DNA of 64,000 nt from Elusimicrobia bacterium GWF2_62_30 (lineage in GTDB: Bacteria; Elusimicrobiota; Elusimicrobia; Elusimicrobiales; UBA9959), in the NCBI GenBank assembly GCA_001799995.1, contig MGUK01000095.1, positions 1-64,000 of the forward strand, written 5' to 3'. Made by a program: the position numbers and the translations under genes. The notes beneath the pieces are model-generated. The model made no database searches. It was given only the letters and a program-made list of their open reading frames with translations, and was not told where the DNA came from. The first letter of the stretch is position 1. Every line of letters starts with the position of its first letter. Shown here piece by piece: positions 5,118 through 62,263 of the stretch.

Positions 5118-5900
5118 TTAGTTCCAGGACATCGCGGGGGCCTCGGCGGCCTTGAGAGGGGGGATGGCCTTGGTCAGTTCCTTCTGCTCGGCGGTGAGGT
5201 CCCGGAACTTGCCGTTGGCGTCGGCGGAGTAGGTCCAGACCCCGGCCTTGGTGCTCAGCACGTTGGAGACGGACCATTTAAGGTCGGACTGCAGCATGGC
5301 CACCGGGTTCTGCGTGGTGCCGATGTTCATCGGGTTGGACATCACGGCGTCCAGGTTGAAGTGCCAGCCCCATTTCACGTCCACGCTTACGGCTTTGACC
5401 GTGAAGTTGGTCAGGTATTTCCCGGTCACGGCGCCGGCGGGGCGGTTCTCCGTGCCTTCAGTGGCGCCGTAGAAGAAGGAGATCTTGTACTTCACCTTGA
5501 TGACGTCGATGTTGTAGAGATTGGTCACCGTGTAGCTGTAGATGTATTCTTTCGGGCCCTGCCAGCCGGCCACGCTGCTCCAGTTAAGGTAGATGGAAGG
5601 GGGAAGGGCGCTGGCGTAAGCCGCGCTGGCCGCCCCGGAAGGAGCGCCGCCGCTTACCACGTTCCAGGCGGCTATGCCCGTGTTTATCAGGGCGGTGGCC
5701 GTCGCCACCTGCTTGCCTGTCCGCGGCAGGCCCTGGGGCCTTTCCAGGATGACTTCCTTGCCGGAGCCTGCTTCGGTGACCGAGACCGACTCGCTCTTGA
5801 TACCGTAATAATCAGAGGCGCTGCCGGCGAAGGCCGGGAGCTGGAAAACGGGGGAGACCGCCAGAAGTACCGCCGCCGCCCGGATCAGATTCGTTTTCAT
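5118..5900 (-). CDS. Secreted protein of unknown function
   Basis: 260 residues from the ATG at 5900, chosen because a strong SD (CAGGAGG) lies 4 bp upstream and a signal peptide (MKTNLIRAAAVLLAVSPVFQLPAFA) begins there. In-frame ATGs further upstream lack both. The mature protein is beta-rich and aromatic (IYLNWSSVAGWQGPKEYIYSYTV, VDVKWGWHFNLDAVM) with no recognised domain and no cysteine pair. It has its own promoter with the CTGGGYC-type upstream element described at 5940-6006. It is divergent from the TPR-kinase gene. Confidence 0.75.
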   Translation of the reverse strand: MKTNLIRAAAVLLAVSPVFQLPAFAGSASDYYGIKSESVSVTEAGSGKEVILERPQGLPRTGKQVATATALINTGIAAWNVVSGGAPSGAASAAYASALPPSIYLNWSSVAGWQGPKEYIYSYTVTNLYNIDVIKVKYKISFFYGATEGTENRPAGAVTGKYLTNFTVKAVSVDVKWGWHFNLDAVMSNPMNIGTTQNPVAMLQSDLKWSVSNVLSTKAGVWTYSADANGKFRDLTAEQKELTKAIPPLKAAEAPAMSWN

Positions 5901-5939: not shown

Positions 5940-6006
5940 AGTTTATACCCGGGAGCCATTATCCGCAAGGGAGCAAAGGCCCAGGCCCGCGGGCCAATGT
6001 ACCCAG
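5940..6006 (-). promoter_or_regulatory. Promoter with tandem CTGGGYC operator-like elements
   Basis: Read on the minus strand: -10 TAAACT (5945-5940), 17-bp spacer, -35 TTGCGG (5968-5963), 7 bp, then CTGGGCCTT (5984-5976). A second CTGGGTACATT starts at 6006, exactly 22 bp upstream of the first. The same element at the same spacing stands before other genes for exported proteins (see 21322, 22498, 27524, 59515), so an activator site next to a weak -35 is likely. Confidence 0.6.
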
Positions 6007-6024: not shown

Positions 6025-6061
6025 CTGGGCCCTTGACAAATATCAAATCGCCCTCTATGCT
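6025..6061 (+). promoter_or_regulatory. Promoter of the TPR-kinase gene
   Basis: TTGACA at 6033-6038, 17-bp spacer, TATGCT at 6056-6061. CTGGGCCC directly abuts the -35, an arrangement resembling the promoters at 57110 and 62449. Confidence 0.6.
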
Positions 6062-6101
6062 ATTATTTACAAAATTAAGTCAGGCTCATAGTTAAATTGA
6101 T

Positions 6102-8660
6102 ATGCGGAAAGAAATCTCCACCTTCTTGCTTGCCCTTGCCATTACGGCCGTGGGCCCTTTTGCCGCGCTTTCGGCGGAGGATGAGCCCGGGGCGGGGACT
6201 ACGGGCAGCCCGGTGCTGGTGAACGCGGACGCCAATGACCCCGGCCAGAAGCCTTTTTTTGACGGCGGCGAAAGCGATCTTGATGTTTTCCGCAATAACG
6301 CGTCGGACCACCCGGAAGTTTCGGCCGCCGCCCTGGTGCGGCTGCTGGCCGGCATGCCCGAGAACGAACAGGCCACTTTCCGGCGCCAGAACTGCGGCAA
6401 GATAGTGGAGATGCTGGCCGCCCTGGACAAAGACGTAAAGGGCGGGCGCGTTACCGCCGGGGATTATACCGAGATCGCCGGCCAGCTGGCCCCGTTCCGG
6501 ATACACACCCTGGCTTTCTTCGAGGCCCCGGACAATGGCGCCGGCAGCCGTGGCTTTAACCGCAACGGGCCGGGTAACAGGCCCGACGCGGGCGGACCGG
6601 GCGGCGACAAGCCGGGGGTGACCGCCGCCGATACCGGTACGGAAGACGGTACGGATTCCAACCCGGTGGACGCCCTGGTGCAGACGCGCATGGTGATCAA
6701 TTCCGGCGACCCGGAACAAACTGCCGCGGCGATAGACAAGGTGCGCTCCGAATTCCCGGACAACCCCTCGGTGCAGGTAGCGGCGGCCACGTATTACAAC
6801 GAGACCGGGGATTCGAAGAACGCCGAGAAAACCGCCACCTTCGCCATCTCGCTGGATTCTAAAAACCCCGACGCCTACAAGACCCGGGCGCTGGCGCGCG
6901 CCACCATGGACGACCGCAACGGCGCCATCGAGGACATACGCAAGGCCATGTCGATAAACCCGCAGGACGAGTCGGCCCGCGTCCTGTCGGTCCTGCTTGA
7001 GAGTAAAAAATCGGCGCGCACGCTGAAGACGGTTTCCTCCCTGCAGGAGATGAAGCGCGCGCTGGGCATGAGGGAAGACACCGTGGACGCCGTGAAGATG
7101 GGTTCCGGCGGCACCGTGCCGGCCTCGATAGAGGGCCAGGAAAGCGCTTCTTCCCCCGACTTCGCGAGGTCCAAAGCGTACCTCAAGACCGCCCTGGCCA
7201 AGAACCGCCTGGGAGATTATGAGAGCGCCGCGGGCTACGCTTCGCTGTCCATAGAAAAGGACCCGGCCAACTTGGAAGCCTACCTGGAGCGGGCCAACGC
7301 TTATAACTTCATGGGGCGCTATGACGACGTCATCCGCGACACCGGGCATGTGATAGGCAAGGACCCGCGCAACCTGCAGGCCTTCAACATGCGCGCCTGG
7401 GCGCTGAACCGCAAGGGCAAGGCGGCGGACGCGGAGACCGACGCCAGCCGCGCGATAGGCATCAACCCTAATTTTGCCGACGCCTGGTTCAACCGTGCCC
7501 TTTCCTATGAGAAGCAGGGCGATTACAAGAAGATGCTGGAGGATTTCAGGCAGGCCGCGGCGCTGAGCGGGGATTATTCCAGCCGCTACCAGGACGCCGT
7601 GGCGCAGTACGGCCCGCGCGTGCCCGGCTTTAACGCCGCCGCCCGCCCGGCCCCCGCGTCCTACGGGCCCGACGGCGAGGTCAAAGAGGAGAAGGGCCGC
7701 AACCCGCTCAGGCGGTTCATCCTGCTGATGATCTTCACGCTTACCGGCGGGGGCCTGGTCGCGATGGGGCTCATCCATATAACCAGCGGGCGCGAGGAAA
7801 AGGGCAAGATCTCCGGGCGCAGGACCCATCCCGACGTGCTGTCCCCTTCCATCTTCTACGAGGGCGTGGCCACCGGCAAATACAAGATCGAGAAAAAAGT
7901 GGGCGAGGGCGGCATGGGGCAGGTCTACCTGGCCGTGGACCAGTCCCTGGGCAGGAAGGTGGCCATCAAGAAGATGAACGAGGAGATCAAGGTGAACGAG
8001 CGCGAGAAGCAGCGCTTCCTCGACGAGGCGCGCACGGTAGCGCTGCTGCACCACCCCAACGTCGTGGAGATCTACACCATCTTCGAGGAAGAGGACGATA
8101 TCTACCTGGTGTTCGAGTACGTGGCCGGGCGCACCCTGGACAGGGTGCTGGATTCGGAGGCGCGCATCCCGTTCGAGAGGGCCCGCACCCTGCTGGACCA
8201 CGCGGCCAAGGCGCTGGCCTACGCGCATTCAAAGGGCGTGGTGCACCGCGACCTGAAGCTTTCCAATATCATGATCTCCGACGAGGGCGAGGTGAAGGTG
8301 ATGGACTTCGGCCTGGCGCGCAGGGCCATGGAATCCATGGCGCGCTTCTCCTCCAATAAAGAGGTGGTGGGTTCGCCGGCCTACATGGCCCCCGAGCAGG
8401 AGCTGGGCGTGTCCTCCGTGGAGTCCGACATCTATTCGCTGGGGGTCTGCCTGTACGAGTCGGTGAGCGGCGTGCTGCCTTTCCAGGGCCCGGACTTCCA
8501 TACCCAGAAAACGCACAAGGCGTACCAGAAGCTTTCCGATGTCGTCCTGGGGCTGCCCAGGGAGATCGACGCGGTGGTGGACCTGTGCCTTTCCCCCGAG
8601 CCTGAGAACCGCTTCCGCACCGTCGAGGACTTCCGCCGCGCCCTGAACCTTGTCCCGTAG
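6102..8660 (+). CDS. Transmembrane Ser/Thr protein kinase with periplasmic TPR sensor region
   Basis: 852 residues. An N-terminal signal peptide (about 1-25) is followed by a Gly/Asp-rich low-complexity stretch, two blocks of TPR repeats (about 189-300 and 356-490), one membrane segment (about 540-558, FILLMIFTLTGGGLVAMGLI) and a Hanks-type kinase domain (about 594-850). All kinase landmarks are intact: Gly loop GEGGMG near 600, VAIKK with Lys623, HRDLKLSN with catalytic Asp717, DFG with Asp735, and GSPAYMAPE. The topology inferred is TPR outside and kinase in the cytoplasm, opposite to the common order of kinase first and sensor last. Substrate unknown. It has its own promoter and terminator, so it is transcribed alone. 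Confidence 0.88.
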   Translation: MRKEISTFLLALAITAVGPFAALSAEDEPGAGTTGSPVLVNADANDPGQKPFFDGGESDLDVFRNNASDHPEVSAAALVRLLAGMPENEQATFRRQNCGKIVEMLAALDKDVKGGRVTAGDYTEIAGQLAPFRIHTLAFFEAPDNGAGSRGFNRNGPGNRPDAGGPGGDKPGVTAADTGTEDGTDSNPVDALVQTRMVINSGDPEQTAAAIDKVRSEFPDNPSVQVAAATYYNETGDSKNAEKTATFAISLDSKNPDAYKTRALARATMDDRNGAIEDIRKAMSINPQDESARVLSVLLESKKSARTLKTVSSLQEMKRALGMREDTVDAVKMGSGGTVPASIEGQESASSPDFARSKAYLKTALAKNRLGDYESAAGYASLSIEKDPANLEAYLERANAYNFMGRYDDVIRDTGHVIGKDPRNLQAFNMRAWALNRKGKAADAETDASRAIGINPNFADAWFNRALSYEKQGDYKKMLEDFRQAAALSGDYSSRYQDAVAQYGPRVPGFNAAARPAPASYGPDGEVKEEKGRNPLRRFILLMIFTLTGGGLVAMGLIHITSGREEKGKISGRRTHPDVLSPSIFYEGVATGKYKIEKKVGEGGMGQVYLAVDQSLGRKVAIKKMNEEIKVNEREKQRFLDEARTVALLHHPNVVEIYTIFEEEDDIYLVFEYVAGRTLDRVLDSEARIPFERARTLLDHAAKALAYAHSKGVVHRDLKLSNIMISDEGEVKVMDFGLARRAMESMARFSSNKEVVGSPAYMAPEQELGVSSVESDIYSLGVCLYESVSGVLPFQGPDFHTQKTHKAYQKLSDVVLGLPREIDAVVDLCLSPEPENRFRTVEDFRRALNLVP

Positions 8661-8775: not shown

Positions 8776-8807
8776 ACCTGTCGCTTCCCTCCATCCGGCG
8801 GCCGTCA

Positions 8808-8919
8808 CGGGGACCGGAACGCAAAACGCGCTAGGGCACACCGTGCCCGTCGCTCATCCTCCTCCTTCGCCGCTTACGCAAGGCTCAGTCGTCGGAAGGT
8901 TTTGCTAATCCGGTCCCCG
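8808..8919 (+). repeat. Palindromic dispersed repeat, copy 1
   Basis: Inverted ends CGGGGACCGG (8808-8817) and CCGGTCCCCG (8910-8919) enclose an 85-bp core bounded by GCAAAAC and GTTTTGC (8821-8905). The core is nearly identical to the one at 57476-57560: the stretch from TCGCTCATCCTCC through GGAAGGTTTTGC is the same. It contains a hairpin GGGCAC-ACC-GTGCCC. No coding frame with a plausible start is present. It lies between convergent genes, as REP- or MITE-like elements often do. Confidence 0.8.
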
Positions 8920-8952
8920 CGCCGTCCGCAGGCTTGCGCAAAAGCTTTGGAG

Positions 8953-9078
8953 GGACGGACGTGGGGGCCGGGTTAGCAAAACCGTCCGTAGGCCGAGGCT
9001 TGCATCGCGCCGAGGCCGGAGGAAGAGCGAGGCACGGTGTGCCGAGCGCGTTTTGCGTTCCGGCCCACATGGCCGTCC
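8953..9078 (-). repeat. Palindromic dispersed repeat, diverged inverted copy 2
   Basis: Read on the minus strand, this copy begins with a GGACGG end and GGGCCGG, then GCAAAACGCGCTCGGCACACC and GTGCC, as in copy 1, and ends in GGTTTTGCTAACCCGG with the matching end. The 81-bp core (8976-9056) has a diverged middle, but the hairpin GGCAC-ACC-GTGCC is kept. Copies 1 and 2 thus form a large inverted repeat; about 31 of 33 bases match in the arms. Confidence 0.75.
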
Positions 9079-21245: not shown

Positions 21246-21321
21246 TACTATTACCTCACAGGCTGCGCCTGATATCGCCCAAAAGGCCTATGCCGCCATG
21301 GGCCCTAAGGCCCGAACGGGT

Positions 21322-21366
21322 CTGGGCCCGCTGCCTATTGACATCCGTCAAAGCGAATTGTATAAC
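21322..21366 (+). promoter_or_regulatory. Promoter of secreted protease with CTGGGYC element
   Basis: CTGGGCCCG (21322-21330), 7 bp, TTGACA (21338-21343), 17-bp spacer, TATAAC (21361-21366). The element keeps the same distance to the -35 as at 59551 and 22498. Confidence 0.7.
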
Positions 21367-21409: not shown

Positions 21410-22411
21410 ATGAAAAATCTGATGAAAGCGACCCTTAGCATAGCGGCCATAGTGGCGCTGCCCGTTCTTTCTTTTTCGGCGGGCAAGAGCATCTACGGTT
21501 CCGATGACCGCCTGAACTACTACGAAGCTTCTGCCGGCATGCAGACCCTGGCGGATTCCGTGGTCTCGTTCTGGAAATCCTACAAGGTGACCGAGAACGC
21601 GGCCACCGGCAAGATGGACCTGACCGTGAGGACGCTGGGCGACGCCAAGAACCTCTGTCCCGGCCAGAAGTTCCGCGACGAGAACGTGGGCGCCTTCTGC
21701 TCCGGCTCCCTCGTGGGCGAAGATATCGTTATGACGGCCGGCCACTGCGTAAAGACGGAAACCGACTGCGCCGCCACCAAGCTGGTGTTCGGCTTCAAGG
21801 TGGGCAAGGCCGGAGAGGCCGGCGCCTCCTCCGTAGCCAAGAGCGAGGTGTACAGCTGCTCGAGCATAGTGAAGCGCTACCTGGTGGGCGAACCCGGCTC
21901 CCCGGCTCCCGCGGGCCAGACCCTGGGCGCCGACTACGCGCTGATCAAGCTTGACCGCAAGGTGACCGGGCATAAAGTGGCGGCTGTCAACAGGAACCCG
22001 ACCACCAAGAAAGGCGATAAGTTGTTCGTGATAGGCCACCCGTCCGGGCTGCCCCTCAAGGTAGCCGGCGGCGCCGTAGTGCGCGACGCCAGCAAGATCG
22101 GCTACTTCATAGCCGACCTGGACACCTTCGGCGGAAATTCCGGTTCCGCGGTGTTCAACGCCTCCAACAACAAGATAGAAGGAATCCTGGTGCGCGGCGA
22201 CAACGACTATATCTCCACCCCGGCCGGCTGCAACTCTGTGGCGACTTTCGAACAGACCGGCGGCCGCGGCGAGGATGTCACCAAGATAGCGGTGGTTTCC
22301 CCCGACATCCCCAAGATGGAGAGCGAGAAGGACTCGACCGAGTACACCAACGTGGACTCTAAGGGGCTGACGCCCGTGAAGGCCGCGCCCAAGACGACGA
22401 TAGGCTTCTGA
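21410..22411 (+). CDS. Secreted trypsin-like serine protease
   Basis: 333 residues, signal peptide MKNLMKATLSIAAIVALPVLSFS. The chymotrypsin-fold triad is complete: His112 in MTAGHC, Asp175 in GADYALIKLD and Ser244 in GGNSGSAV. The region GHPSGLPLKVAGGAVVRD is typical of bacterial V8/trypsin-like enzymes. Several cysteines suggest disulfides in the exported form. A clear paralogue is at 61226-62263, sharing the mature N-terminus GKSIYG.D.RL.Y.EA. SD CTGGAGG. Terminator follows directly, so it is a single-gene unit. Its target is unknown. Confidence 0.9.
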   Translation: MKNLMKATLSIAAIVALPVLSFSAGKSIYGSDDRLNYYEASAGMQTLADSVVSFWKSYKVTENAATGKMDLTVRTLGDAKNLCPGQKFRDENVGAFCSGSLVGEDIVMTAGHCVKTETDCAATKLVFGFKVGKAGEAGASSVAKSEVYSCSSIVKRYLVGEPGSPAPAGQTLGADYALIKLDRKVTGHKVAAVNRNPTTKKGDKLFVIGHPSGLPLKVAGGAVVRDASKIGYFIADLDTFGGNSGSAVFNASNNKIEGILVRGDNDYISTPAGCNSVATFEQTGGRGEDVTKIAVVSPDIPKMESEKDSTEYTNVDSKGLTPVKAAPKTTIGF

Positions 22412-22497: not shown

Positions 22498-22542
22498 CTG
22501 GGTCTTTCGGCCTATAAAAAGCCGCCGCTGCGCGGGTAAACT
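22498..22542 (+). promoter_or_regulatory. Promoter with CTGGGYC element, weak -35 and TAAACT -10
   Basis: CTGGGTCTT (22498-22506), 7 bp, a poor -35 ATAAAA (22514-22519), 17 bp, TAAACT (22537-22542). From the -10 on, 13 bases (TAAACTATATACA) are identical to those at 27563, and the upstream element has the same distance in both. Confidence 0.6.
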
Positions 22543-22585: not shown

Positions 22586-23626
22586 ATGAAGGCAAACAAA
22601 ATATACAGTCCCGCTGAAAACCTGAAAAGGGCGTTCGCCGCTTTTCTCTTCGCTTCCGGCCTGCTGCTGGCGCCGCTGTCCGCGCTTTCCGCCGCCGGGG
22701 CCCTGGATTCGCTTTCGTCGCTGGCCGCCCCTTACGCCGTAGACGTCCCGGTCGTTTCCACCCCGGCCGTTTCTACCGGCACCGTAGTGACCGGGAAGGC
22801 GCTGAACGCCTATTTCCTGAGCGTGGGCCAGGGAGACGCCGAGTATATAGAACTGCCCAATGGCGGTAATGTTCTCATCGACGCGGGCCCCAATCCCACG
22901 GCGCCGCTCATCGAGTTCCTTACTGAGCACGGCATAACCAAGATCGACCACGTGGTGCTGACCCATCCGCATTCAGACCATTACAGCGGGCTCGGCTATA
23001 TTTTCGACAATATCAGCGTGGCTAATTTCTACGACACCAGGATGGATAACACCGGCTCCGCCAGGATAAAAACACTGCGGGCCAAAGTCGGTGAACTTGG
23101 CATTAACGCCGTATACCCAGCCGCGGGCGACGAATTGAACTGGGACCCGGAAGTAAAAGTAAAGGTGTTAAATAGCTGCTCTGAACCCGGCGAAAGCGGC
23201 TCAGGCCACGTTCTCAACGATTGCTCGATAGTGCTGAAAGTGACCTACCAGAACAGTTCGATACTTTACATGGGCGACGCCGAGACCGATGTGGAGGAGA
23301 AGTTGATCGCCGCATACGGGGATGAACTGAAGGCCGATGTCCTGAAGGTCGGGCATCACGGCAGCGCCACCGCCTCCAGCCCGGCTTTCCTGGCCAAGGT
23401 CCGGCCCTGGCTGGCCTATATCGAGGTGGGCTACCTCAATACTTTCGATTTCCCGGCTCCCTCCACTTCTATCAACCTGGCCGCCATTGGCGCCACGCCG
23501 CGGCTTACCTACATAACGCGCAACGAGGTTTATACTATCCCGGCCGCGCCGCCGGGCCCCGGCGGCACGCCGCCGCTGCCGCCGCTGCCCCCCATTCCGC
23601 CGTCTCCCGTATTGCCGGCACGGTAG
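22586..23626 (+). CDS. Secreted ComEC/Rec2-like metallo-beta-lactamase-fold protein
   Basis: 346 residues. A signal peptide (about 1-38) precedes an MBL domain of the kind found at the C-terminus of ComEC: AYFLSVGQGDAEYIELPNGGNVLIDAGP, then the metal motif THPHSDHYSGLGY, DCSIVLKVTYQNSSILYMGDAE, and LKVGHHGS. Unlike ComEC it has no multi-pass channel part, so it is a free exported hydrolase, probably a nuclease or phosphodiesterase acting outside the cytoplasm. The C-terminus is a Pro/Gly-rich tail (PPLPPLPPIPPSP). The promoter at 22498 carries the CTGGGYC element. Confidence 0.85.
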   Translation: MKANKIYSPAENLKRAFAAFLFASGLLLAPLSALSAAGALDSLSSLAAPYAVDVPVVSTPAVSTGTVVTGKALNAYFLSVGQGDAEYIELPNGGNVLIDAGPNPTAPLIEFLTEHGITKIDHVVLTHPHSDHYSGLGYIFDNISVANFYDTRMDNTGSARIKTLRAKVGELGINAVYPAAGDELNWDPEVKVKVLNSCSEPGESGSGHVLNDCSIVLKVTYQNSSILYMGDAETDVEEKLIAAYGDELKADVLKVGHHGSATASSPAFLAKVRPWLAYIEVGYLNTFDFPAPSTSINLAAIGATPRLTYITRNEVYTIPAAPPGPGGTPPLPPLPPIPPSPVLPAR

Positions 23627-27523: not shown

Positions 27524-27568
27524 GTAGGTCTTTTTGCCCTTTTGGGGCGGGGCCGGGACTGATAAACT
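27524..27568 (+). promoter_or_regulatory. CTGGGYC-class promoter giving a probable leaderless mRNA
   Basis: GTAGGTCTT (27524-27532, 7 of 9 to the element), 7 bp, TTTTGG (27540-27545), 17 bp, TAAACT (27563-27568). The ATG at 27575 lies 7 bp after the -10, where transcription should begin, and there is no SD. Confidence 0.55.
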
Positions 27569-27574
27569 ATATAC

Positions 27575-28372
27575 ATGCTAAAACAGATCTCCCGCCGCTG
27601 TTTGCTCCCGCTTTCCCTGCTTTTCCTGCCGCTGTTCTCTTCGGCCGCCGCGTTCGAAGAAATCTACAGCGCTTCCGGCTACAACTTCTCGGCCGGCCTC
27701 TCCGCCTTTGTAAGCCCGCCCGCGGCGCCGGTGTCCTTCCCGTCCGCGGTAATAGATAAAGCCGCGGCGTCCGGCCATTACTTAACGCCTTCTGAACTGG
27801 ACCTCTCCGCGGTGCCCGCGGCGCCGGCCGACGGTTCCGCCGCCGATAAAAAAGACTTCGAGACGCTGCTGGCCTGGCAGGCCGGCCGCACCGGCGCGCA
27901 GTGCTCGCTGGCCCAGTCCGAGACGGAACATTCCTTCGAGGTGTTCTTCGGCAAGATCACCCCTTTCGCCGTTCCGCAGCCGGACGCCGTTAAGAAGTTC
28001 TTCAGCCACGTAGGGAAAGATTCCGTGGCGGCCCATACTTACCTCAAGGGTATTTATAAACGCGAGCGCCCGTTCGTGCGCGACGCCCGGATAAAGCCCT
28101 GCGTCATGCGGCCGCGCGGGCTGGCTTATCCCAGCGGCCACGCGACCATGTCCAGGCTCTTCGCCCTGATACTAGGCGACCTGGTGCCGTCGCGCAGGAA
28201 AGCGTTCATCGCCCGCGCCGACGAGGCCGCGCTCAACCGCGTAATAGCCGGCGTCCACCATCCCACCGACATAGAGGCCGGCCGCCTGCTGGCCAACGAG
28301 CTTTACCGCAACCTGCTTGAAGACGAGGCTTTCGTCTCCGACATGGAGAGCATGCGCGCCTACCTGCGCTAG
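27575..28372 (+). CDS. Exported PAP2 / class A acid phosphatase
   Basis: 265 residues with a signal peptide (MLKQISRRCLLPLSLLFLPLFSSAAA). The three PAP2 motifs are present in order: KGIYKRERPF, YPSGHATM and GVHHPTDIEAGR, carrying the phosphate-binding Lys/Arg and the two catalytic His. Class A acid phosphatases hydrolyse phosphomonoesters in the periplasm or outside. Although it is a phosphatase, no Pho box is seen; its promoter is of the CTGGGYC class. Confidence 0.9.
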   Translation: MLKQISRRCLLPLSLLFLPLFSSAAAFEEIYSASGYNFSAGLSAFVSPPAAPVSFPSAVIDKAAASGHYLTPSELDLSAVPAAPADGSAADKKDFETLLAWQAGRTGAQCSLAQSETEHSFEVFFGKITPFAVPQPDAVKKFFSHVGKDSVAAHTYLKGIYKRERPFVRDARIKPCVMRPRGLAYPSGHATMSRLFALILGDLVPSRRKAFIARADEAALNRVIAGVHHPTDIEAGRLLANELYRNLLEDEAFVSDMESMRAYLR

Positions 28373-28413
28373 CGCTGTTCCGGCCGTCTTTTGGGTCTAA
28401 AGTCCCAGGCCGC

Positions 28414-28480
28414 CTGGGTCCTTTGTGCCCATGCGGCAGGGGCGAATACGATTGTAGAATCTACTTACGCGTTATATAAT
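28414..28480 (+). promoter_or_regulatory. Promoter region of the deiminase-like gene
   Basis: CTGGGTCCT at 28414-28422 and a TTGGGTC-like copy 23 bp upstream; TTGTAG (28452-28457), 17 bp, TATAAT (28475-28480), with TAGAAT (28455-28460) as an alternative -10. CTTACG (28464) and CGTAAG (28494) form an inverted repeat around the start region and could be an operator. Confidence 0.5.
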
Positions 28481-28520: not shown

Positions 28521-29732
28521 ATGAAAAAAGCAAACTTTCTCGTGTTATCCCTCCTGTCATCCGTTTCCTCCGGGGCCTATGCCCTGGACCTGAACAATCC
28601 CCTTCCCAACTGGATAGACCCGGGCCGCGAAAAAGTGGTCAAAGCCGCGCCCGCGGAGACAGGCCTGCGCGCCGTCCCGCCGTCGGGTTTCCGCATGCCG
28701 GCCGAATACGAGCCCGTGGCCGGCGTGGTCATCGGCTGGGCCGGCTATACCGGCATGCTCGCTAAAATAGCGCAGGCCGCCGCCGGTCCCGGCAACGCCA
28801 AGATCTTCGGCGTAGCCGCTCCCGCCACTCTTTCCGGCGTTCCCGCTGATAAATACAAGAAGCTGGACCTCCCCATCGACACCGTCTGGGTGCGCGATTA
28901 CGGCCCTTTCGGCATCACCAGCTCCGGCAAGCTCGGCATAGTGGATACGGTTTACCGCCATTACCAGTACCGCCAGGACGACGACACGCTGCCCGCCAAC
29001 CTGGGCAAAGCCCTCGGCGCCAGCGTCTTCGGCACCAACATCATCCTGGACGGCGGCAACCTGATGGTGGACACGAAGGGCAACCTGTTCATGACCCGCC
29101 GCACCTATATGTGGAATTCCTCCATGTCCCAGGAGCAGGTGGATACCGCGCTCAAGGCGCAGTTCAAGGTGAACAATATCCATGTTTTCGACTACGCCGG
29201 CTACCCGGGCGAGCCTAAGGACGGCACCGGCCATATCGACATGTTCATGAAGCTGCTCAACGACCACACCGTGCTTATCACGGTGGCGGAAACCGAGCCG
29301 TTCAAGACCAATTCCGAAAAAGCGATGGCCTTCTTCAAGGGGCGCATGGCGCCGGACGGCCAGCCTTACAAGATCGTGACCGCCAAAGGCTGGGCGACTT
29401 ACGGGGCCTGGTACACGTATACCAACTCGCTGATCGTAAACAATACCGTCATCATGCCCTCTTATTCCGGGCATGCCCAGGACGAGGCGCAGGCTATAGC
29501 GGCTTACAAGGCCGGGATGCCCAATGTCACGGTGGTGCCCGTTAATTCCGACGACAGCATCACCGCCGGCGGCTCCATACACTGCGTCACGCAGACCCTG
29601 CCGGTGCTCCCAAGCAAAGATATGAAGCTGGGGCCGTACATAGACGTGGCCCCGAACTTCGGGCCTTACAGCCTGTCCGGCCTGGGCGAGTTGCCCGCCC
29701 TCGGCCAGCTTACCGACGCCCTCGGCCGGTAA
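28521..29732 (+). CDS. Secreted agmatine deiminase / peptidylarginine deiminase family protein
   Basis: 403 residues with a signal peptide (MKKANFLVLSLLSSVSSGAYA). The guanidino-group-modifying fold is clear: MPAEYEPVAGVVIGWAG, WVRDYGPFGI, ILDGGNLMVDTKGN, GHIDMFMKLL and the catalytic Cys in GGSIHCVTQTLP. Cytoplasmic members (AguA) make N-carbamoylputrescine; secreted members such as the Porphyromonas enzyme act on protein or peptide arginine. The signal peptide favours the second, but this is inference. SD AGAGGA. Terminator follows; single-gene unit. Confidence 0.85.
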   Translation: MKKANFLVLSLLSSVSSGAYALDLNNPLPNWIDPGREKVVKAAPAETGLRAVPPSGFRMPAEYEPVAGVVIGWAGYTGMLAKIAQAAAGPGNAKIFGVAAPATLSGVPADKYKKLDLPIDTVWVRDYGPFGITSSGKLGIVDTVYRHYQYRQDDDTLPANLGKALGASVFGTNIILDGGNLMVDTKGNLFMTRRTYMWNSSMSQEQVDTALKAQFKVNNIHVFDYAGYPGEPKDGTGHIDMFMKLLNDHTVLITVAETEPFKTNSEKAMAFFKGRMAPDGQPYKIVTAKGWATYGAWYTYTNSLIVNNTVIMPSYSGHAQDEAQAIAAYKAGMPNVTVVPVNSDDSITAGGSIHCVTQTLPVLPSKDMKLGPYIDVAPNFGPYSLSGLGELPALGQLTDALGR

Positions 29733-40751: not shown

Positions 40752-40793
40752 ATGCCGCGCTGCCTTTTCCTGCCCGTATCTTCTTTACCCGCA

Positions 40794-40837
40794 TTTTACC
40801 GCCGCCTTAAACGCGCTTTATACGCGTTTTCTAAACT
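40794..40837 (+). promoter_or_regulatory. Pho box promoter of the porin-pstS unit
   Basis: Three 11-bp direct repeats, TTTTACCGCCG (40794), CCTTAAACGCG (40805) and CTTTATACGCG (40816), then -10 TAAACT at 40832. The box starts exactly 38 bp before the -10, as in the two other boxes here (43012, 46500). The 11-bp period is that of PhoB sites. The ATG at 40844 is at the expected RNA start, so the mRNA is probably leaderless. Confidence 0.75.
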
Positions 40838-40843
40838 TTAAGC

Positions 40844-43000: not shown

Positions 43001-43011
43001 TATTACCCGGA

Positions 43012-43055
43012 TTTTACACGGGCTTTAAACGGTTTTGACCCCGGTTCGCTAAACT
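43012..43055 (+). promoter_or_regulatory. Pho box promoter of pstCAB-phoU
   Basis: 11-bp repeats TTTTACACGGG (43012), CTTTAAACGGT (43023) and the weaker TTTGACCCCGG (43034), followed by TAAACT at 43050. Start-of-box to -10 is 38 bp. Confidence 0.75.
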
Positions 43056-43078
43056 AAGTGAAGAAGGACCTGTAAAAG

Positions 43079-46488: not shown

Positions 46489-46543
46489 CTTTACATACAT
46501 TTTACACGGGCTTTATGCGGGCTTCATACGCTTGTTCTAAACT
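46489..46543 (+). promoter_or_regulatory. Four-repeat Pho box promoter of the Pit unit
   Basis: 11-bp repeats CTTTACATACA (46489), TTTTACACGGG (46500), CTTTATGCGGG (46511) and CTTCATACGCT (46522), then TAAACT at 46538. The TTTTAC repeat starts 38 bp before the -10. Strongest of the three boxes. Confidence 0.78.
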
Positions 46544-46577
46544 ATAGGGGTAGTCTAACCCGTTACCAGGAGAGAAT

Positions 46578-49499: not shown

Positions 49500-50522
49500 T
49501 TAAAGGCCGAGCCGGCCGCCGGAGAGCCTGAGCTCTTCCATGCCGGTCTTCAGGGTGTAAATTTTAAGCCAGCTGTTATAGACCGAGCAGTAGGCCGCGT
49601 CGGAGGAGGAGCCGGCGCTTTTGAGGCAGGCGCCGTTGAGCTGGTCTACGGCGAGGTTCTCATACTCTTTCTTGATGATCCAGTCCGCGTCCATCGCAAA
49701 GCCGCAGCGCAGCACTATCTTGTCCTGCTCTTCCGGGGTCTTGCCGCGCAGCCAGTCCATCAGTTCCACGGAGCTGGTCCCGCAGAGTTCCGTCTTCCAC
49801 TCGGCTTCGTTGGCCGCCTGCAGGGCCGCCTTCCCGCCGGAACCGGGCGCGGTTTTTTGCAGCATCTGGGCGAAGCGCGCTGAGGCGGCCGCCGTTTCCG
49901 CCGGGCCGAGCTTGGCGAACTTGGCGGAGGTATAATGCGCCTCCACTTTTTTGAGCAGCGCGGGTTTAAGCGCTTCGAAATAATACGCGTCCCAGGAGGA
50001 GATGGCGGCCCGGGCTTTGGCTTCCTCGGCCTTCTTGAGCTTGTTTGAGCGGTCGCAGCCGGAGTCCAGGGCGCAGACCTTGTCCGGCAGGGTGGCCGCG
50101 TCGTACTTCTCCTGTACCGTCTGCGAGTTATAGCGGTAAACCGGGGAGAAAACCGTCGCGCTCTCCGGGCTCAGGTCGAGCACGGTGAAATTGTGGAAAT
50201 CCGGCAGGGTGGAGTCCTGTATCTGCACCAGCAGGCGGCGCGGCCAGCCGGTAAGCCGGTAGAAGCGCAGGCTGTTCATGGAGTAGCGGAAATACGGGTG
50301 GCCGTTTACCAGGTAATCGAAAGAGCCGCTGAATTCGGCAAGCAGGGCCGCGTTGTCGGTTACCCGGAAATTGCCGGCTGTTTTTATGGGGGAAGGCGCC
50401 GTTACCCGGGGCAGGGCCAGTTGTTTTATCTCCAGGGGTTTAATTGCCTGCAGCTCCGCGAAATCCGTCGCGTAAGCCGTGCCGGAAAACATAAGGAAAG
50501 CCGCCGTAAGGGTTCTTATCAT
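49500..50522 (-). CDS. Secreted protein of unknown function
   Basis: 340 residues from the ATG at 50522, which begins a signal peptide (MIRTLTAAFLMFSGTAYA); an in-frame ATG at 50573 adds a non-signal extension. The middle is helical (TLPDKVCALDSGCDRSNKLKKAEEAKARAAISSWDAYY, seen in pieces) with several paired cysteines, suggesting disulfides in the exported form. No family recognised. Divergent from alaS. Confidence 0.7.
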   Translation of the reverse strand: MIRTLTAAFLMFSGTAYATDFAELQAIKPLEIKQLALPRVTAPSPIKTAGNFRVTDNAALLAEFSGSFDYLVNGHPYFRYSMNSLRFYRLTGWPRRLLVQIQDSTLPDFHNFTVLDLSPESATVFSPVYRYNSQTVQEKYDAATLPDKVCALDSGCDRSNKLKKAEEAKARAAISSWDAYYFEALKPALLKKVEAHYTSAKFAKLGPAETAAASARFAQMLQKTAPGSGGKAALQAANEAEWKTELCGTSSVELMDWLRGKTPEEQDKIVLRCGFAMDADWIIKKEYENLAVDQLNGACLKSAGSSSDAAYCSVYNSWLKIYTLKTGMEELRLSGGRLGL

Positions 50523-50639
50523 ATGTATAGGATACCCCGCGGACGGGCTTTGTATAAGTGTCAAAAGCCCCACCCGTTTTGGGCAATGGTACTATTGATA
50601 ACCGTCAAACCCGTGGCTCCGGCGGCAGCGGCGCGGAAC

Positions 50640-57091: not shown

Positions 57092-57137
57092 CTGGGTCTT
57101 TATTGGGCCTTGACAAGTCCAGTGGGTCTGCTATACT
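57092..57137 (+). promoter_or_regulatory. Strong promoter of the CGGU-repeat RNA with CTGGGYC element
   Basis: TTGACA (57110-57115), 16 bp, TATACT (57132-57137). CTGGGTCTT (57092-57100) lies 31 bp before the -10, close to the 30 bp seen at the exported-protein promoters. TTGGGCCTTGACA is shared with the MarR promoter at 62442. Confidence 0.75.
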
Positions 57138-57143
57138 ACTAGT

Positions 57144-57445
57144 GCAGTGCTGATCTTTTCGGTGCGCCGGTCCTTCGGTAGTCGTCTCGGTCCGTCGTTG
57201 CGGTGCGGTTCGGTGTGCGGTCTCGGTGGCGGCTTGGCGGGTTCTGCCCGCGGCCCCCGGCGCGGTTCCCCGGTCGGTAGTTCCCGCCCTGCGGCGGGGC
57301 CGGGTAGGCGGTCCGGATGCGGTTCGGTTGCGGTGTCGGTGTGCGGTCGCGGTGCGGTTGCGGTGTCGGTTCCCGGTCCGTCTGTGCAGTGTGCTGGCCC
57401 GTGTGCCACGTGAAGAGCCCCCGATCCCCGGGGGCTCTCGCTTTG
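57144..57445 (+). ncRNA. Candidate non-coding RNA made of CGGU repeats
   Basis: Between a near-consensus promoter and a terminator lies a stretch with no believable reading frame. It contains 23 CGGT tetramers between 57160 and 57377, mostly 1-4 nt apart, and a 16-nt direct repeat (57325 and 57355, 30-nt period). The CGGT-rich arms contain little A and few self-complementary segments, so they should be largely single-stranded. The centre has two stable hairpins (GCGGG-TTCTG-CCCGC near 57238; CCCGCC / GGCGGG near 57284). This resembles in principle a protein-titrating RNA such as CsrB, but with CGGU and not GGA. It does not match RNase P, tmRNA, SRP RNA or 6S signatures. Confidence 0.55.
57414..57444 (+). 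terminator. Terminator of the CGGU-repeat RNA
   Basis: Perfect 10-bp stem AGAGCCCCCG / CGGGGGCTCT, loop ATCCC, followed by a weak T tract (CGCTTTGT). Confidence 0.7.
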
Positions 57446-57451
57446 TATGGG

Positions 57452-57585
57452 GGGCCTGAAGCGGGGGCAGGGTTAGCAAAACGCGCTCGCCCACACCGTG
57501 GGCATCGCTCATCCTCCTCCTTCGCCGCTTACGCAAGGCTCAGTCGTCGGAAGGTTTTGCATAACCCTGTCCCCGCTTCAGGCCC
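57452..57585 (+). repeat. Palindromic dispersed repeat, copy 3
   Basis: Outer ends GGGCCTGAAGCGGGG (57452-57466) and CCCCGCTTCAGGCCC (57571-57585) are perfect inverted repeats; the arms continue as CAGGGTTA-GCAAAAC. The 85-bp core (57476-57560) matches copy 1 at 8821-8905 almost throughout. Its small hairpin is GCCCAC-ACC-GTGGGC where copy 1 has GGGCAC-ACC-GTGCCC: both sides have changed together. Confidence 0.8.
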
Positions 57586-58460: not shown

Positions 58461-59486
58461 TCAGTTCGCCTGCCTCGCGAGCAGCATCATGAAAACGGCT
58501 TCCGCGAAGCGGGCGCGGTCGAATTCTATCTTCTTGGTCTTCTTTATGGTGGCGCCGTGGTCCACACCGGGGATCTTGATGTAGTCCGTCCCCGGCAGGA
58601 TGGCGCTGTCCACGGTCACGAGGCCGTCGTTCTTCAGGCCCTGCTTCAACATCCAGTTGCGCAGGGGCCGCAGACCGGTGTCCTGGTCTTTCTCCGAAGG
58701 GTCCTTCCAGGTGGCTACAGAAATTATCGGCACGGCGCTTATTACCGAGCTGACGGCCGCCGCATTGTTTTCCAGGTAGGCTTTCCTGTCGGCCGTGGTC
58801 AGGTTTATCATCGAATCGATGCTGCCGCCCACGCGCTCCAGGAAGCGCGACAGCGGCCCGGCGATGCCGCGGTGCTCCATCACGTAATCGGCCACAGGGG
58901 TGCCGAGGAAAGGGATCTGGCACATCACCACGCCGCGCACTTTAGGGGCCAGCTCCTGCTCCGCCACCAGCGCTTCCAGCACGTCCAGGCCGCCCTTGCT
59001 GGAGCCCACTATCATCACCGGCTTATCCGAAGCCTTGATGGCCGCCGAAATTATAGCCGCGTTCACCTGCACGGAGGATTCAGATTTCATGGAAAGAAGT
59101 TCGTATTCGGCGCCGATGCTTTTCAGCCAGGCTATCTGTTCCGCGAAATGAGGCTTGGGTTTAGCGGCGGGCTTCTTTTTCGCCAGCGGGAGCTTGCTCT
59201 TGTCGAGGTTGGAGAACAGGCCGGAAACCAGGATGAATTTGTACGCTTTAAGTTTCTGCGTCCCTTCGGGGTTCTTCGTGCCGGCCTTTTCAAAAGCGGC
59301 AGCGTATTCGGCGGTAGCATCCAGGCCGTTGACCCGCGCCGGTGCGGCGGCAGCAACGGGAGCGGGAACCGGGGCGTTGGTGCCGGACTTCAATTGTTCA
59401 AGAGAAAGTGTCTGGGCTGAAGCCGCGGCAGCCCCCAGGAGGAGCGAGGCCGACACCAGGAAAGCTGCTGTTCTTATGTTCCGCAT
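58461..59486 (-). CDS. Secreted lipase-like alpha/beta hydrolase
   Basis: 341 residues, signal peptide MRNIRTAAFLVSASLLLGAAAASA, an Ala/Pro-rich linker, then an alpha/beta hydrolase core (about 80-340): YKFILVSGLFSN, nucleophile Ser in VGSSKGGLDVLEAL, CQIPFLGTPVADYVMEH and a C-terminal GVDHGATI with the likely catalytic His. The pattern fits triacylglycerol-lipase/esterase folds. The promoter carries tandem CTGGGYC elements. SD AAGGAG. Confidence 0.75.
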   Translation of the reverse strand: MRNIRTAAFLVSASLLLGAAAASAQTLSLEQLKSGTNAPVPAPVAAAAPARVNGLDATAEYAAAFEKAGTKNPEGTQKLKAYKFILVSGLFSNLDKSKLPLAKKKPAAKPKPHFAEQIAWLKSIGAEYELLSMKSESSVQVNAAIISAAIKASDKPVMIVGSSKGGLDVLEALVAEQELAPKVRGVVMCQIPFLGTPVADYVMEHRGIAGPLSRFLERVGGSIDSMINLTTADRKAYLENNAAAVSSVISAVPIISVATWKDPSEKDQDTGLRPLRNWMLKQGLKNDGLVTVDSAILPGTDYIKIPGVDHGATIKKTKKIEFDRARFAEAVFMMLLARQAN

Positions 59487-59514: not shown

Positions 59515-59581
59515 AGTATACCCCGCGCCCGTGCCCCCGCCAAGCGCCAACGGGCCCAGGCCCGGGTGGTAAAGGACCCAG
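59515..59581 (-). promoter_or_regulatory. Promoter with tandem CTGGGYC elements
   Basis: Minus strand: TATACT (59520-59515), 17 bp, TTGGCG (59543-59538), 7 bp, CTGGGCCCG (59559-59551) and a second CTGGGTCCT starting at 59581, 22 bp upstream. This is the same geometry as at 5940-6006. Confidence 0.65.
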
Positions 59582-61225: not shown

Positions 61226-62263
61226 TTAGAAGCCGACTTTCACATTGGTGTTGTCCGCGGGCGCCGCGGGGGGTTCCACTTTCACATCCACCACATCGGC
61301 CTTGGCCTTTTCGTTGGCTATAGCCTTGTCCTTAGGGATGTTTTTGACGATAGCGTCCAGCATCTTGGTTACCGCTTCGCCCTTGCCTTCCTTCTGGCCT
61401 ACCTGGTAGGAGACCGTGCAGCCCGCGGGGCCCTTTACGAAGTCGGTGCCGCCGCGGACCAGGATGCCTTCTATCAGCTTGGTCTCGGCGTTGAAGACCG
61501 CCGAGCCTGAATTGCCGCCGAAGGTGTCCAGGTCGGTCATGAAGAAGTACCTGGCGGAAGCGTCGCGGATGCTGGCGCCGCCGGCAAGCTTGAGCGGCAG
61601 GCCCACCGGGTGGCCTATCACGAACAGCTTGGTGTCCTTCACCAGTTTCTGCTTGCGGTTGACGGGCAGCGCCTTGTGGCCGGACACTTTCTTGTCCAGC
61701 TGCACCAGGGCGAAGTCGGGGCCGGGCCCGCCGTTGACCATGTTGCCGATGAGCACGGCCACGGTGTTGACGAAGTTGGTGGGCTGGGTGCCGAGGTTGC
61801 GCTTTATGATCTTCTTGCAGCCGTAAACGTCAGAGGCGGGCACCGTGGTGACGGCGGCTTCGCCTTCCTTCTTTACCTTGTAGCCGAACACGAACTTGGT
61901 GTCCGCGCACTTGGCGTCGTCGGTGATGCAGTGGCCGGCCGTCATTACTACGTCCGGACCTACCAGCGTGCCGGAGCAGAACGCGCCGATGGGCTGCGCG
62001 CGGAACTTCTCATTGGGGCAGAGGTTGAGCGCGCTGCCGAAGTTCATGGTGGCCAGCTTGAAGTCCGAGCCGGAAGCGGTAAGGTTCTTGGCTTCCCAGA
62101 GCGAAACCACCGAGTCGGCCAGCTTCTGCAGGTCGGCGGTAGCTTCGTGGTACTCCAGGCGGTTGTCCTCGCCGTAGATGCTCTTCCCCACGGCGGACGA
62201 CAGTACGGGCAGCGCCGCGGAAAGGAGCGTAAGACTGAAGAATACATGCAGCATTCGTTTCAT
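61226..62263 (-). CDS. Secreted trypsin-like serine protease (paralogue)
   Basis: 345 residues from the ATG at 62263, which has a strong SD (GGGAGGA). Signal peptide MKRMLHVFFSLTLLSAALPVLSSA. Triad His111 (MTAGHC), Asp183 (GPDFALVQLD) and Ser252 (GGNSGSAV). The mature N-terminus GKSIYGEDNRLEYHEA mirrors that of the protease at 21410. The tail is acidic and Pro-rich and may be a pro- or sorting segment. Own promoter; single gene. Confidence 0.9.
   Translation of the reverse strand: MKRMLHVFFSLTLLSAALPVLSSAVGKSIYGEDNRLEYHEATADLQKLADSVVSLWEAKNLTASGSDFKLATMNFGSALNLCPNEKFRAQPIGAFCSGTLVGPDVVMTAGHCITDDAKCADTKFVFGYKVKKEGEAAVTTVPASDVYGCKKIIKRNLGTQPTNFVNTVAVLIGNMVNGGPGPDFALVQLDKKVSGHKALPVNRKQKLVKDTKLFVIGHPVGLPLKLAGGASIRDASARYFFMTDLDTFGGNSGSAVFNAETKLIEGILVRGGTDFVKGPAGCTVSYQVGQKEGKGEAVTKMLDAIVKNIPKDKAIANEKAKADVVDVKVEPPAAPADNTNVKVGF

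What the first reader, a model, noticed from the sequence alone, without database searches (positions are those of the whole stretch)
5940..6006. A shared promoter element links genes for exported proteins (possible unknown regulon)
CTGGGYCYT, then 7 bp, a mostly weak -35, 17 bp, and a -10 (often TAAACT) recurs at 5984-5940 (minus), 21322-21366, 22498-22542, 27524-27568 (7 of 9) and 59559-59515 (minus). Looser copies are at 28414 and 57092. The distance from element to -10 is 30 bp in the five strict cases. All strict cases precede genes with signal peptides (secreted unknown, protease, MBL, PAP2 phosphatase, lipase-like). This fixed phasing next to poor -35 boxes is what an activator touching sigma70 would leave. 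The extended form, GGGTCCTTTnnGCCC, is an imperfect inverted repeat.
Basis: partly seen in the sequence, partly recalled or inferred. Interest (0 to 1): 0.75.

Follow-up and report, generated by a model that had tools for sequence, protein, structure and literature searches.

The report
Shared switch for secreted-enzyme genes
A short DNA signal, always placed the same distance before the start of transcription, sits in front of many secreted-protein genes throughout a little-studied, mostly uncultured group of bacteria, and looks like the landing site of one activator protein that switches these genes on together.

Summary
In the window, a CTGGGYCYT-like box 30 bp before a sigma70 -10 occurs at all five strict places claimed, plus a sixth at 50573(-). 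Genome searches show an Elusimicrobia-class promoter architecture, TRGGYC-YTTW-GRCCY followed by TAWAMT at fixed spacing: 776 hits in 151 of 196 class genomes, against one hit for the reversed-pattern control.

The element is a dyad centred near -41.5/-42.5. It is often repeated 22-25 or about 48 bp upstream. It precedes signal-peptide genes: 47 of 55 phased sites, against 28% of background genes. Members include clostripain, trypsin-like, PLD, MBL, PAD and amidase hydrolases, plus an unknown paralogous exported family. It is not a general exported-gene promoter.

Best reading: the operator of a dimeric class-II activator. The best candidate regulator is a conserved NarL/GerE-type response regulator, called RR-A here. 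It tracks the element by family, but it was not found in this 84%-complete genome and no binding was tested. CRP/FNR and a second response regulator fit worse. I found nothing in print on this regulon.

The parts
5940..5984 (-). Phased element (CTGGGCCTT) + N30 + -10 TAAACT, promoter of the exported-protein gene 5118-5900(-)
   Evidence: (composite score 26.1); conserved in 26 of 29 genus genomes
5990..6006 (-). Second copy of the dyad, 22 bp upstream
   Evidence: sequence
5118..5900 (-). Exported protein of unknown family (260 aa, signal peptide); member of a paralogous family that is the most frequent in the regulon
   Evidence: (no Pfam); structure model without PDB match
21322..21366 (+). 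Phased element (CTGGGCCCG) + N30 + -10 TATAAC; contains an FNR-like TTGA-N6-TCAA dyad right after the element
   Evidence: (score 15.2)
21298..21314 (+). Second copy of the dyad, 24 bp upstream
21410..22411 (+). Trypsin-like exported protease gene
22498..22542 (+). Phased element (CTGGGTCTT) + N30 + -10 TAAACT
   Evidence: (24.6); conserved in 25 of 29 genus genomes
22586..23626 (+). Exported metallo-beta-lactamase-fold protein gene
27524..27568 (+). Phased element (GTAGGTCTT) + N30 + -10 TAAACT
   Evidence: (22.3)
27575..28372 (+). PAP2 phosphatase gene; signal peptide by eye when started at 27575 (my gene caller started it at 27602)
50529..50573 (-). Sixth phased element (GTGGGGCTT) + N30 + -10 TATCCT, not in the finding
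   Evidence: 22.0
49500..50522 (-). Exported protein gene, no Pfam family; signal peptide by eye (missed by my rule)
59515..59559 (-). Phased element (CTGGGCCCG) + N30 + -10 TATACT
   Evidence: (25.2)
59565..59581 (-). Second copy of the dyad, 22 bp upstream
58461..59486 (-).
28400..28430 (+). Two weak dyads before the exported PAD_porph gene 28521-29732(+); phased score only 12.0, doubtful member
6025..6069 (+). Weak divergent element (score 14.0, poor -10) before the TPR/protein-kinase gene 6102-8660(+), doubtful member

Best explanation
The element is the operator of one dimeric transcription activator that controls a secreted-hydrolase (exoprotein) regulon in the bacterial class Elusimicrobia. 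A dimer binds the dyad TRGGYC-YTTW-GRCCY(A), centred at about -41.5/-42.5. There it overlaps the upstream edge of an imperfect -35 and can touch sigma70 polymerase (class II activation). Further dimers bind copies about 23-24 or 48 bp upstream and probably help each other. Shown: the sequence, its phasing, the tandem copies, its conservation and its link to signal-peptide genes. Inferred: that a protein binds it, that the effect is activation, and who the regulator is. The most likely regulator is RR-A, a NarL/VraR/GerE-type response regulator conserved across most families of the class that carry the element. In f1 and f2 genomes looked at, RR-A follows a dCache-sensor histidine kinase and a receiver-kinase hybrid, so the signal may be an extracellular small molecule. 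I put the operator/activator part at about 0.85 and RR-A as the regulator at about 0.5; the confidence below is for the whole statement.
For: Fixed spacing: 37 of 39 genus hits; 19 pairs at N30 against at most 5 at any other spacing 10-60. Class-wide: 776 hits in 151 of 196 genomes, control 1. Intergenic excess 14 against 0.5. Signal-peptide link: 12/112 against 3/313, 7/44 against 0/135, 6/22 against 0/90 in an f2 genome, 47/55 phased sites against 213/758 genes. Orthologous promoters 26/29 and 25/29. Dyad centre at position 9.5 and tandem copies in 28 of 51 promoters, 35 copies against 3.2 expected. RR-A and element: 145 genomes both, 23 RR-A only, 6 element only, 22 neither; outside f1/f2 49/63 against 2/23. 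RR-A domains and operon; DNA-binding part nearest VraR, also GerE and ComA.
Against: No binding or expression data. RR-A was not found in the window's own genome (best E 5e-45 is a paralogue; 84% complete) nor in five other element-bearing genomes. The co-occurrence is not corrected for relatedness of the families, and 23 genomes with RR-A show no element. Other regulators with the same distribution were not searched for. -35 boxes are better than average, not worse, so the main argument for activation is phasing alone. Two of the samples (G114, G026) show no significant signal-peptide enrichment.
Confidence: 0.58

Rival explanations
1. The element is the operator of a CRP/FNR-family activator. 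The dyad geometry and the -41.5 position are CRP/FNR-like, and two such proteins exist in the genus: one beside hisS, one beside upp with FNR-like cysteines.
For: CRP/FNR-type proteins in 19 of 19 genus genomes searched and their sequences; the dyad is 5-N4-5 like an FNR site (recalled).
Against: No match in 6 of 12 f2 genomes and mostly weak ones in the rest, although f2 carries the element and the regulon: G031, with no match, has 12 element hits. FNR-like dyads occur separately, just after the element, in 4 of 51 promoters.
Confidence: 0.1
2. The element is a repressor operator overlapping the -35, controlling the same exoprotein genes.
For: The site overlaps the promoter, and the -35 boxes are better than those of other -10 sites (2.58 against 1.09).
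Against: A repressor does not need one fixed distance; here spacing is N29-30 in nearly all promoters across a class. Extra copies lie upstream in helical steps rather than over the start.
Confidence: 0.15
3. The regulator is some other transcription factor, for example the second response regulator RR-B or an untested family, acting in the same way as an activator.
For: Only two regulators were profiled across the class; over all 196 genomes RR-B also associates with the element (78 of 84 against 73 of 112, p=2.5e-6), because f2 has it.
Against: For RR-B: outside f1/f2 it is found in 2 of 86 genomes while 51 of these 86 carry the element. For others: not tested.
Confidence: 0.25
4. The box is part of an unusual promoter core, an alternative sigma factor signal, or merely inherited sequence in one gene family, not an activator site.
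For: The element runs straight into the -35 (CCCTTG), and 20 of 55 phased sites are in one paralogous family.
Against: The -10 is sigma70-like and 30 bp away, too far for a sigma -35/-10 pair. Copies occur 22-25 and about 48 bp upstream. The 55 sites fall into 24 protein clusters, 18 of them mostly signal-peptide. Reversed and column-shuffled controls are near zero.
Confidence: 0.04

Closest known systems
Class II activator promoters (CRP or FNR at -41.5 in E. coli; recalled)
   Same: Dyad centred at about -41.5/-42.5, fixed phase to a sigma70 -10, incomplete -35
   Different: Different box; CRP/FNR proteins do not follow its distribution; activation not shown
LuxR/NarL-type regulators GerE, VraR/LiaR, ComA (binding sites recalled)
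   Same: RR-A has receiver + GerE domains and its DNA-binding part is nearest to VraR, GerE and ComA in the PDB; GerE's recalled consensus contains TRGGY, as the half-site here; ComA's recalled box is 6-N4-6
   Different: Other phylum and other targets; binding of RR-A to this box not tested; the GerE consensus could not be verified in the library
Exoprotein regulons such as PlcR of the Bacillus cereus group (recalled)
   Same: One box in front of many genes for secreted proteases, phospholipases and other hydrolases
   Different: Other regulator family and box, other phylum; here the phase is fixed across a whole class

Membership tests
Class II activator-dependent sigma70 promoter | Dyad operator centred near -41.5 at fixed distance from a sigma70-like -10 | tested here: met
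   the transcription start itself is inferred
Class II activator-dependent sigma70 promoter | -35 weaker than in activator-independent promoters | tested here: not met
   mean -35 score 2.58 against 1.09 at other -10 sites; the comparison sites are predicted promoters, so a weak test; TTG is often kept, ACA usually not
Class II activator-dependent sigma70 promoter | Transcription depends on the bound activator | not testable with these tools
   needs reporter or in vitro transcription
Exoprotein regulon | Target genes code for secreted proteins well above background | tested here: met
   47/55 against 213/758; 7/44 against 0/135; 6/22 against 0/90; not significant in G114 and G026
NarL/GerE-type response regulator regulon (RR-A) | Regulator with receiver and GerE domains present wherever the element is | tested here: inconclusive
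   145 of 151 element-bearing genomes have RR-A; G000, G024, G295, G301, G270 and G283 do not; relatedness not corrected
NarL/GerE-type response regulator regulon (RR-A) | Regulator binds the box | not testable with these tools
   half-site resembles the recalled GerE consensus only
CRP/FNR regulon | A CRP/FNR protein in every genome with the regulon | tested here: not met
   (none in 6 of 12 f2 genomes)
Alternative (ECF-type) sigma factor promoter | Conserved box at -35, 16-19 bp before a non-sigma70 -10 | tested here: not met
   box ends 20-22 bp and its conserved part lies 30 bp before a TAWACT/TATAAT-like -10

The most novel reading that the evidence does not exclude
An ancient, class-wide secretion control circuit of Elusimicrobia. 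A membrane kinase with a dCache sensor reads an extracellular compound and a phosphorelay loads RR-A. RR-A dimers line up at 23-24-bp steps on TRGGYC dyads and switch on a battery of secreted peptidases, phospholipases, deiminases and lineage-specific proteins. In part of the promoters an FNR-like dyad set between the element and the -10 adds an oxygen or redox veto. The phased element would then predict much of the regulated secretome of a mostly uncultured lineage from sequence alone.
Probability: 0.4. Interest if true: 0.75.

Novelty: new member of a known kind. Interest (0 to 1): 0.62.

Why it matters
Elusimicrobia are mostly known from metagenomes (general knowledge), and the searches made here turned up no described exoprotein regulon for them. 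A phased operator that marks secreted hydrolases across a class gives a testable regulator-box pair and a way to find the proteins these bacteria send out, including many of unknown family. If RR-A is the regulator, secretion is tied to a kinase with an outside sensor, and what these cells respond to becomes an experiment.

Tried and rejected
Bare 9-mer enrichment in the window: only 95 against 71 +/- 8, too weak alone. Loose 15-mer GGGYCYTTTNNNCCC with one mismatch: 107 hits against 154 for its control, no signal without phasing. CRP/FNR as regulator: rejected by the f2 genomes. RR-B, a second NarL-type regulator beside a PAS kinase: over all 196 genomes it associates with the element (78/84 against 73/112, p=2.5e-6), but that comes mostly from f2; outside f1/f2 there is no association (2/2 against 49/84, p=0.51). 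57092 as a member: N31, good -35, no signal-peptide gene, downstream RNA not unusually folded (z 0.59). Structure of the 5900 family: pLDDT 65, no PDB match at E<=0.001. GerE consensus in the literature: two searches and one paper (passages of PMC4750369) did not give it; it stays recalled. Paper searches for an Elusimicrobia regulon: only listings and abstract starts were seen.

Limits: genes were called by my own script and signal peptides by a crude rule, which missed 27575 (start miscalled) and 50522 in the window; I count such cases as exported by eye only where I say so. The -10 and -35 matrices were typed from general knowledge. The element matrix was trained on 38 phased sites of other genus genomes, not G000, but some of those sites may be in G018 or among the promoters, so G018 and one search are not fully independent; others (G000, second batch; f2) are. 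The output was cut in the middle.

Full report
What was checked. The window is part of a 2.9-Mb, 99-contig genome assembly, 84% complete and, in the window, 62% G+C. Hits of its pattern in named genomes place the lineage in Elusimicrobia. All five strict sites of the finding exist, with exactly 30 bp between the nine-base box and the -10. The box alone is barely enriched in the window. The pair of box and -10 is: 6 at N30 against 0-3 at each other spacing from 26 to 34.

Beyond the window. The stringent pattern CTGGGYCYT-N28-32-TAWACT has 5 hits in the own genome against 0 for the pattern read backwards, and 54 against 2 in 25 genus genomes; in 16 genomes of family f2 it has 1 against 3. When spacing was left free over 29 values, 37 of 39 hits were 43-45 long. 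In 198 phylum genomes the phased form appears in the same family and in other families of the class, and hardly elsewhere. In the collection of 84,980 species genomes a longer pattern hits 23 stretches: 17 titled Elusimicrobia or Elusimicrobiales, 5 titled only 'bacterium', 1 titled Bacillota. The last lies before a gene without signal peptide and is probably chance; of the 23, 14 precede a signal-peptide gene by rule and 19 by eye.

The class-wide form. TRGGYCYTTNGRCNCT-N22-TAWAMT with at most one mismatch hits 151 of 196 class genomes, 776 hits in all; the reversed control has one. Families f1, f2, f7, f8, f24 and f27 carry it, f5 and f29 a little; f3, f4, f6, f9, f25, f26 and f28 have none.

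Anatomy. A matrix was built from 38 phased sites of other genus genomes, leaving G000 out. The consensus is CTGGGCCYTTNGRCNCT. Its best self-complementarity is at position 9.5 (correlation 0.35), so the dyad centre lies near -41.5/-42.5 if transcription starts seven bases after the -10; that start is inferred. In intergenic DNA the element at score 14 or more is found 14 times against 0.5 with shuffled columns; in coding DNA 17 times against about 15. A spacing scan gives 19 pairs at N30 and at most 5 elsewhere. Of 51 promoters scoring 14 or more in four genomes, 28 have a second copy upstream, 35 copies in all against 3.2 expected, mostly 22-25 or 46-51 bp away. That is what dimers lined up on DNA would leave.

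The genes. In the first sample (864 kb of G000 and G018, 425 genes with room upstream), score >=18 is reached by 12 of 112 signal-peptide genes and 3 of 313 others; two of those three, 27602 and 50522 in the window, are exported by eye. In 394 kb of G000 not used before, score >=16 is reached by 7 of 44 against 0 of 135. At >=18 the counts are 3 of 28 against 0 of 100 in G078 (another genus), 6 of 22 against 0 of 90 in G034 (family f2), 2 of 23 against 1 of 75 in G114 (f7) and 1 of 23 against 1 of 79 in G026 (f2); the last two are not significant. Over the phased sites with fetched loci, 47 of 55 precede a signal-peptide gene, 18 of 24 protein clusters, against 213 of 758 background genes; 13 unphased pattern matches were left out of that count.

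What they code for. Of 20 members scanned, Pfam names five clostripain peptidases, two PLD proteins, two HEAT-repeat proteins, and one each of metallo-beta-lactamase, PAD_porph, amidase and M20 peptidase; seven have no family. In the window come the trypsin-like protease, the metallo-beta-lactamase and PAP2. The most frequent member is a paralogous exported family with no Pfam hit; a structure model of it is poor and matches nothing. Many exported proteins without the element look by eye like outer-membrane, efflux or lipoprotein components. So this is a secreted-hydrolase regulon rather than a rule for all export.

Footprinting. Promoters of the 5900 family score 14 or more in 26 of 29 genus loci tested, and those of the metallo-beta-lactamase in 25 of 29, against means of 0.8 and 0.75 with shuffled columns (maxima 6 and 3). 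Nearly all are at N29 or N30, while the bases between change (one locus of each set was skipped, one for lack of the gene start and one at a contig edge).

The regulator. CRP/FNR proteins fit the geometry but give no match in 6 of 12 f2 genomes and mostly weak ones in the rest, while f2 has the regulon. Response regulators with a GerE domain are in 54 of 60 class genomes. One of them, RR-A, is 63-76% identical to the first sequence between families, with an almost unchanged DNA-binding helix. Its presence at E<=1e-80 was compared with the element in 196 genomes: 145 have both, 23 RR-A only, 6 the element only, 22 neither. All genomes of f3, f4, f6, f9 and f28 lack both. Outside f1 and f2 the element is in 49 of 63 genomes with RR-A and 2 of 23 without. 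RR-B shows no such link outside f1/f2. In the f1 and f2 genomes G067, G034 and G026, RR-A follows a membrane kinase and a receiver-kinase hybrid; in G067 and G034 the kinase was checked and has dCache and HisKA domains, the dCache match of G034 being below its cut-off. The closest solved relatives of RR-A are VraR, and by its DNA-binding part also GerE and ComA. The GerE consensus with TRGGY is recalled, not found. RR-A was not found in G000, and relatedness of the families was not corrected for. The assignment is therefore a lead with about even odds.

Mechanism. Most likely, activator dimers bound at -41.5/-42.5, helped by dimers bound one or two 23-24-bp steps upstream, recruit sigma70 polymerase to promoters with an incomplete -35. 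The rigid phasing is the main argument for activation; the somewhat better-than-average -35 boxes keep repression possible. Four of 51 promoters have an FNR-like dyad at a fixed place just after the element, against 0 of 493 background segments; lying between -35 and -10, it would suit a repressor. This is inference.

Novelty. Searches of the paper library for Elusimicrobia with promoter/regulon, secreted/transcription factor/binding motif, regulon, E. minutum/peptidases/pili, two-component/secreted, and Elusimicrobiota with transcriptional regulation listed no paper on such a regulon; only listings and abstract starts were read, and the library lacks most subscription journals. It is a new member of a known kind, an exoprotein regulon with a class-II-type operator, unusual in its spread and strict phase.

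Noticed in passing
40793-40838, 43011-43056, 46499-46544: Three related intergenic repeats (TTTTAC-rich) lie near genes that look like phosphate transport and PhoB/PhoR-type regulation; they resemble Pho boxes (by eye).
   Followed up: no
8806-9071 and 57448-57560: An 85-nt repeat, 93% identical, with inverted copies around it, in two gene-free stretches; perhaps a mobile or REP-like repeat. The RNA of 57140-57570 is not unusually folded (z 0.59).
   Followed up: partly
57092-57137: A CTGGGTCTT box at N31 with a strong TTGACA/TATACT promoter but no convincing gene behind it; a similar site exists in G044 (L136). Possibly a non-coding transcript.
   Followed up: partly
21338-21351; L185, L116, L091: FNR-like TTGA-N6-TCAA dyads directly after the element at position 16-17, in 4 of 51 promoters against 0 of 493 background segments.
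   Followed up: partly
5118-5900; L197:979-4692: A large paralogous family of exported proteins, several copies per genome in nearly all genus genomes, no Pfam family, mostly beta-strand in a weak model.
   Followed up: partly
58461-59486, 22586-23626; L181:14510-15166 and others: Many regulon proteins have a short segment after the signal peptide like 'L..LKA.....VPAP' (by eye); could be a propeptide or sorting segment.
   Followed up: no
L080:13133 and L080:14470: Two neighbouring non-exported genes have GTAAC-N-GTTAC palindromes at their -10 beside a weak element-like box; probably another regulator's site.
   Followed up: no
27563-27577; L132, L291, L296: In some element promoters the start codon lies only 6-7 nt after the -10, which would give leaderless mRNAs.
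   Followed up: no
21410-22411 and 61226-62263: Two paralogous exported trypsin-like genes on opposite strands (DNA 74-82% alike); only the first has the element.
   Followed up: no
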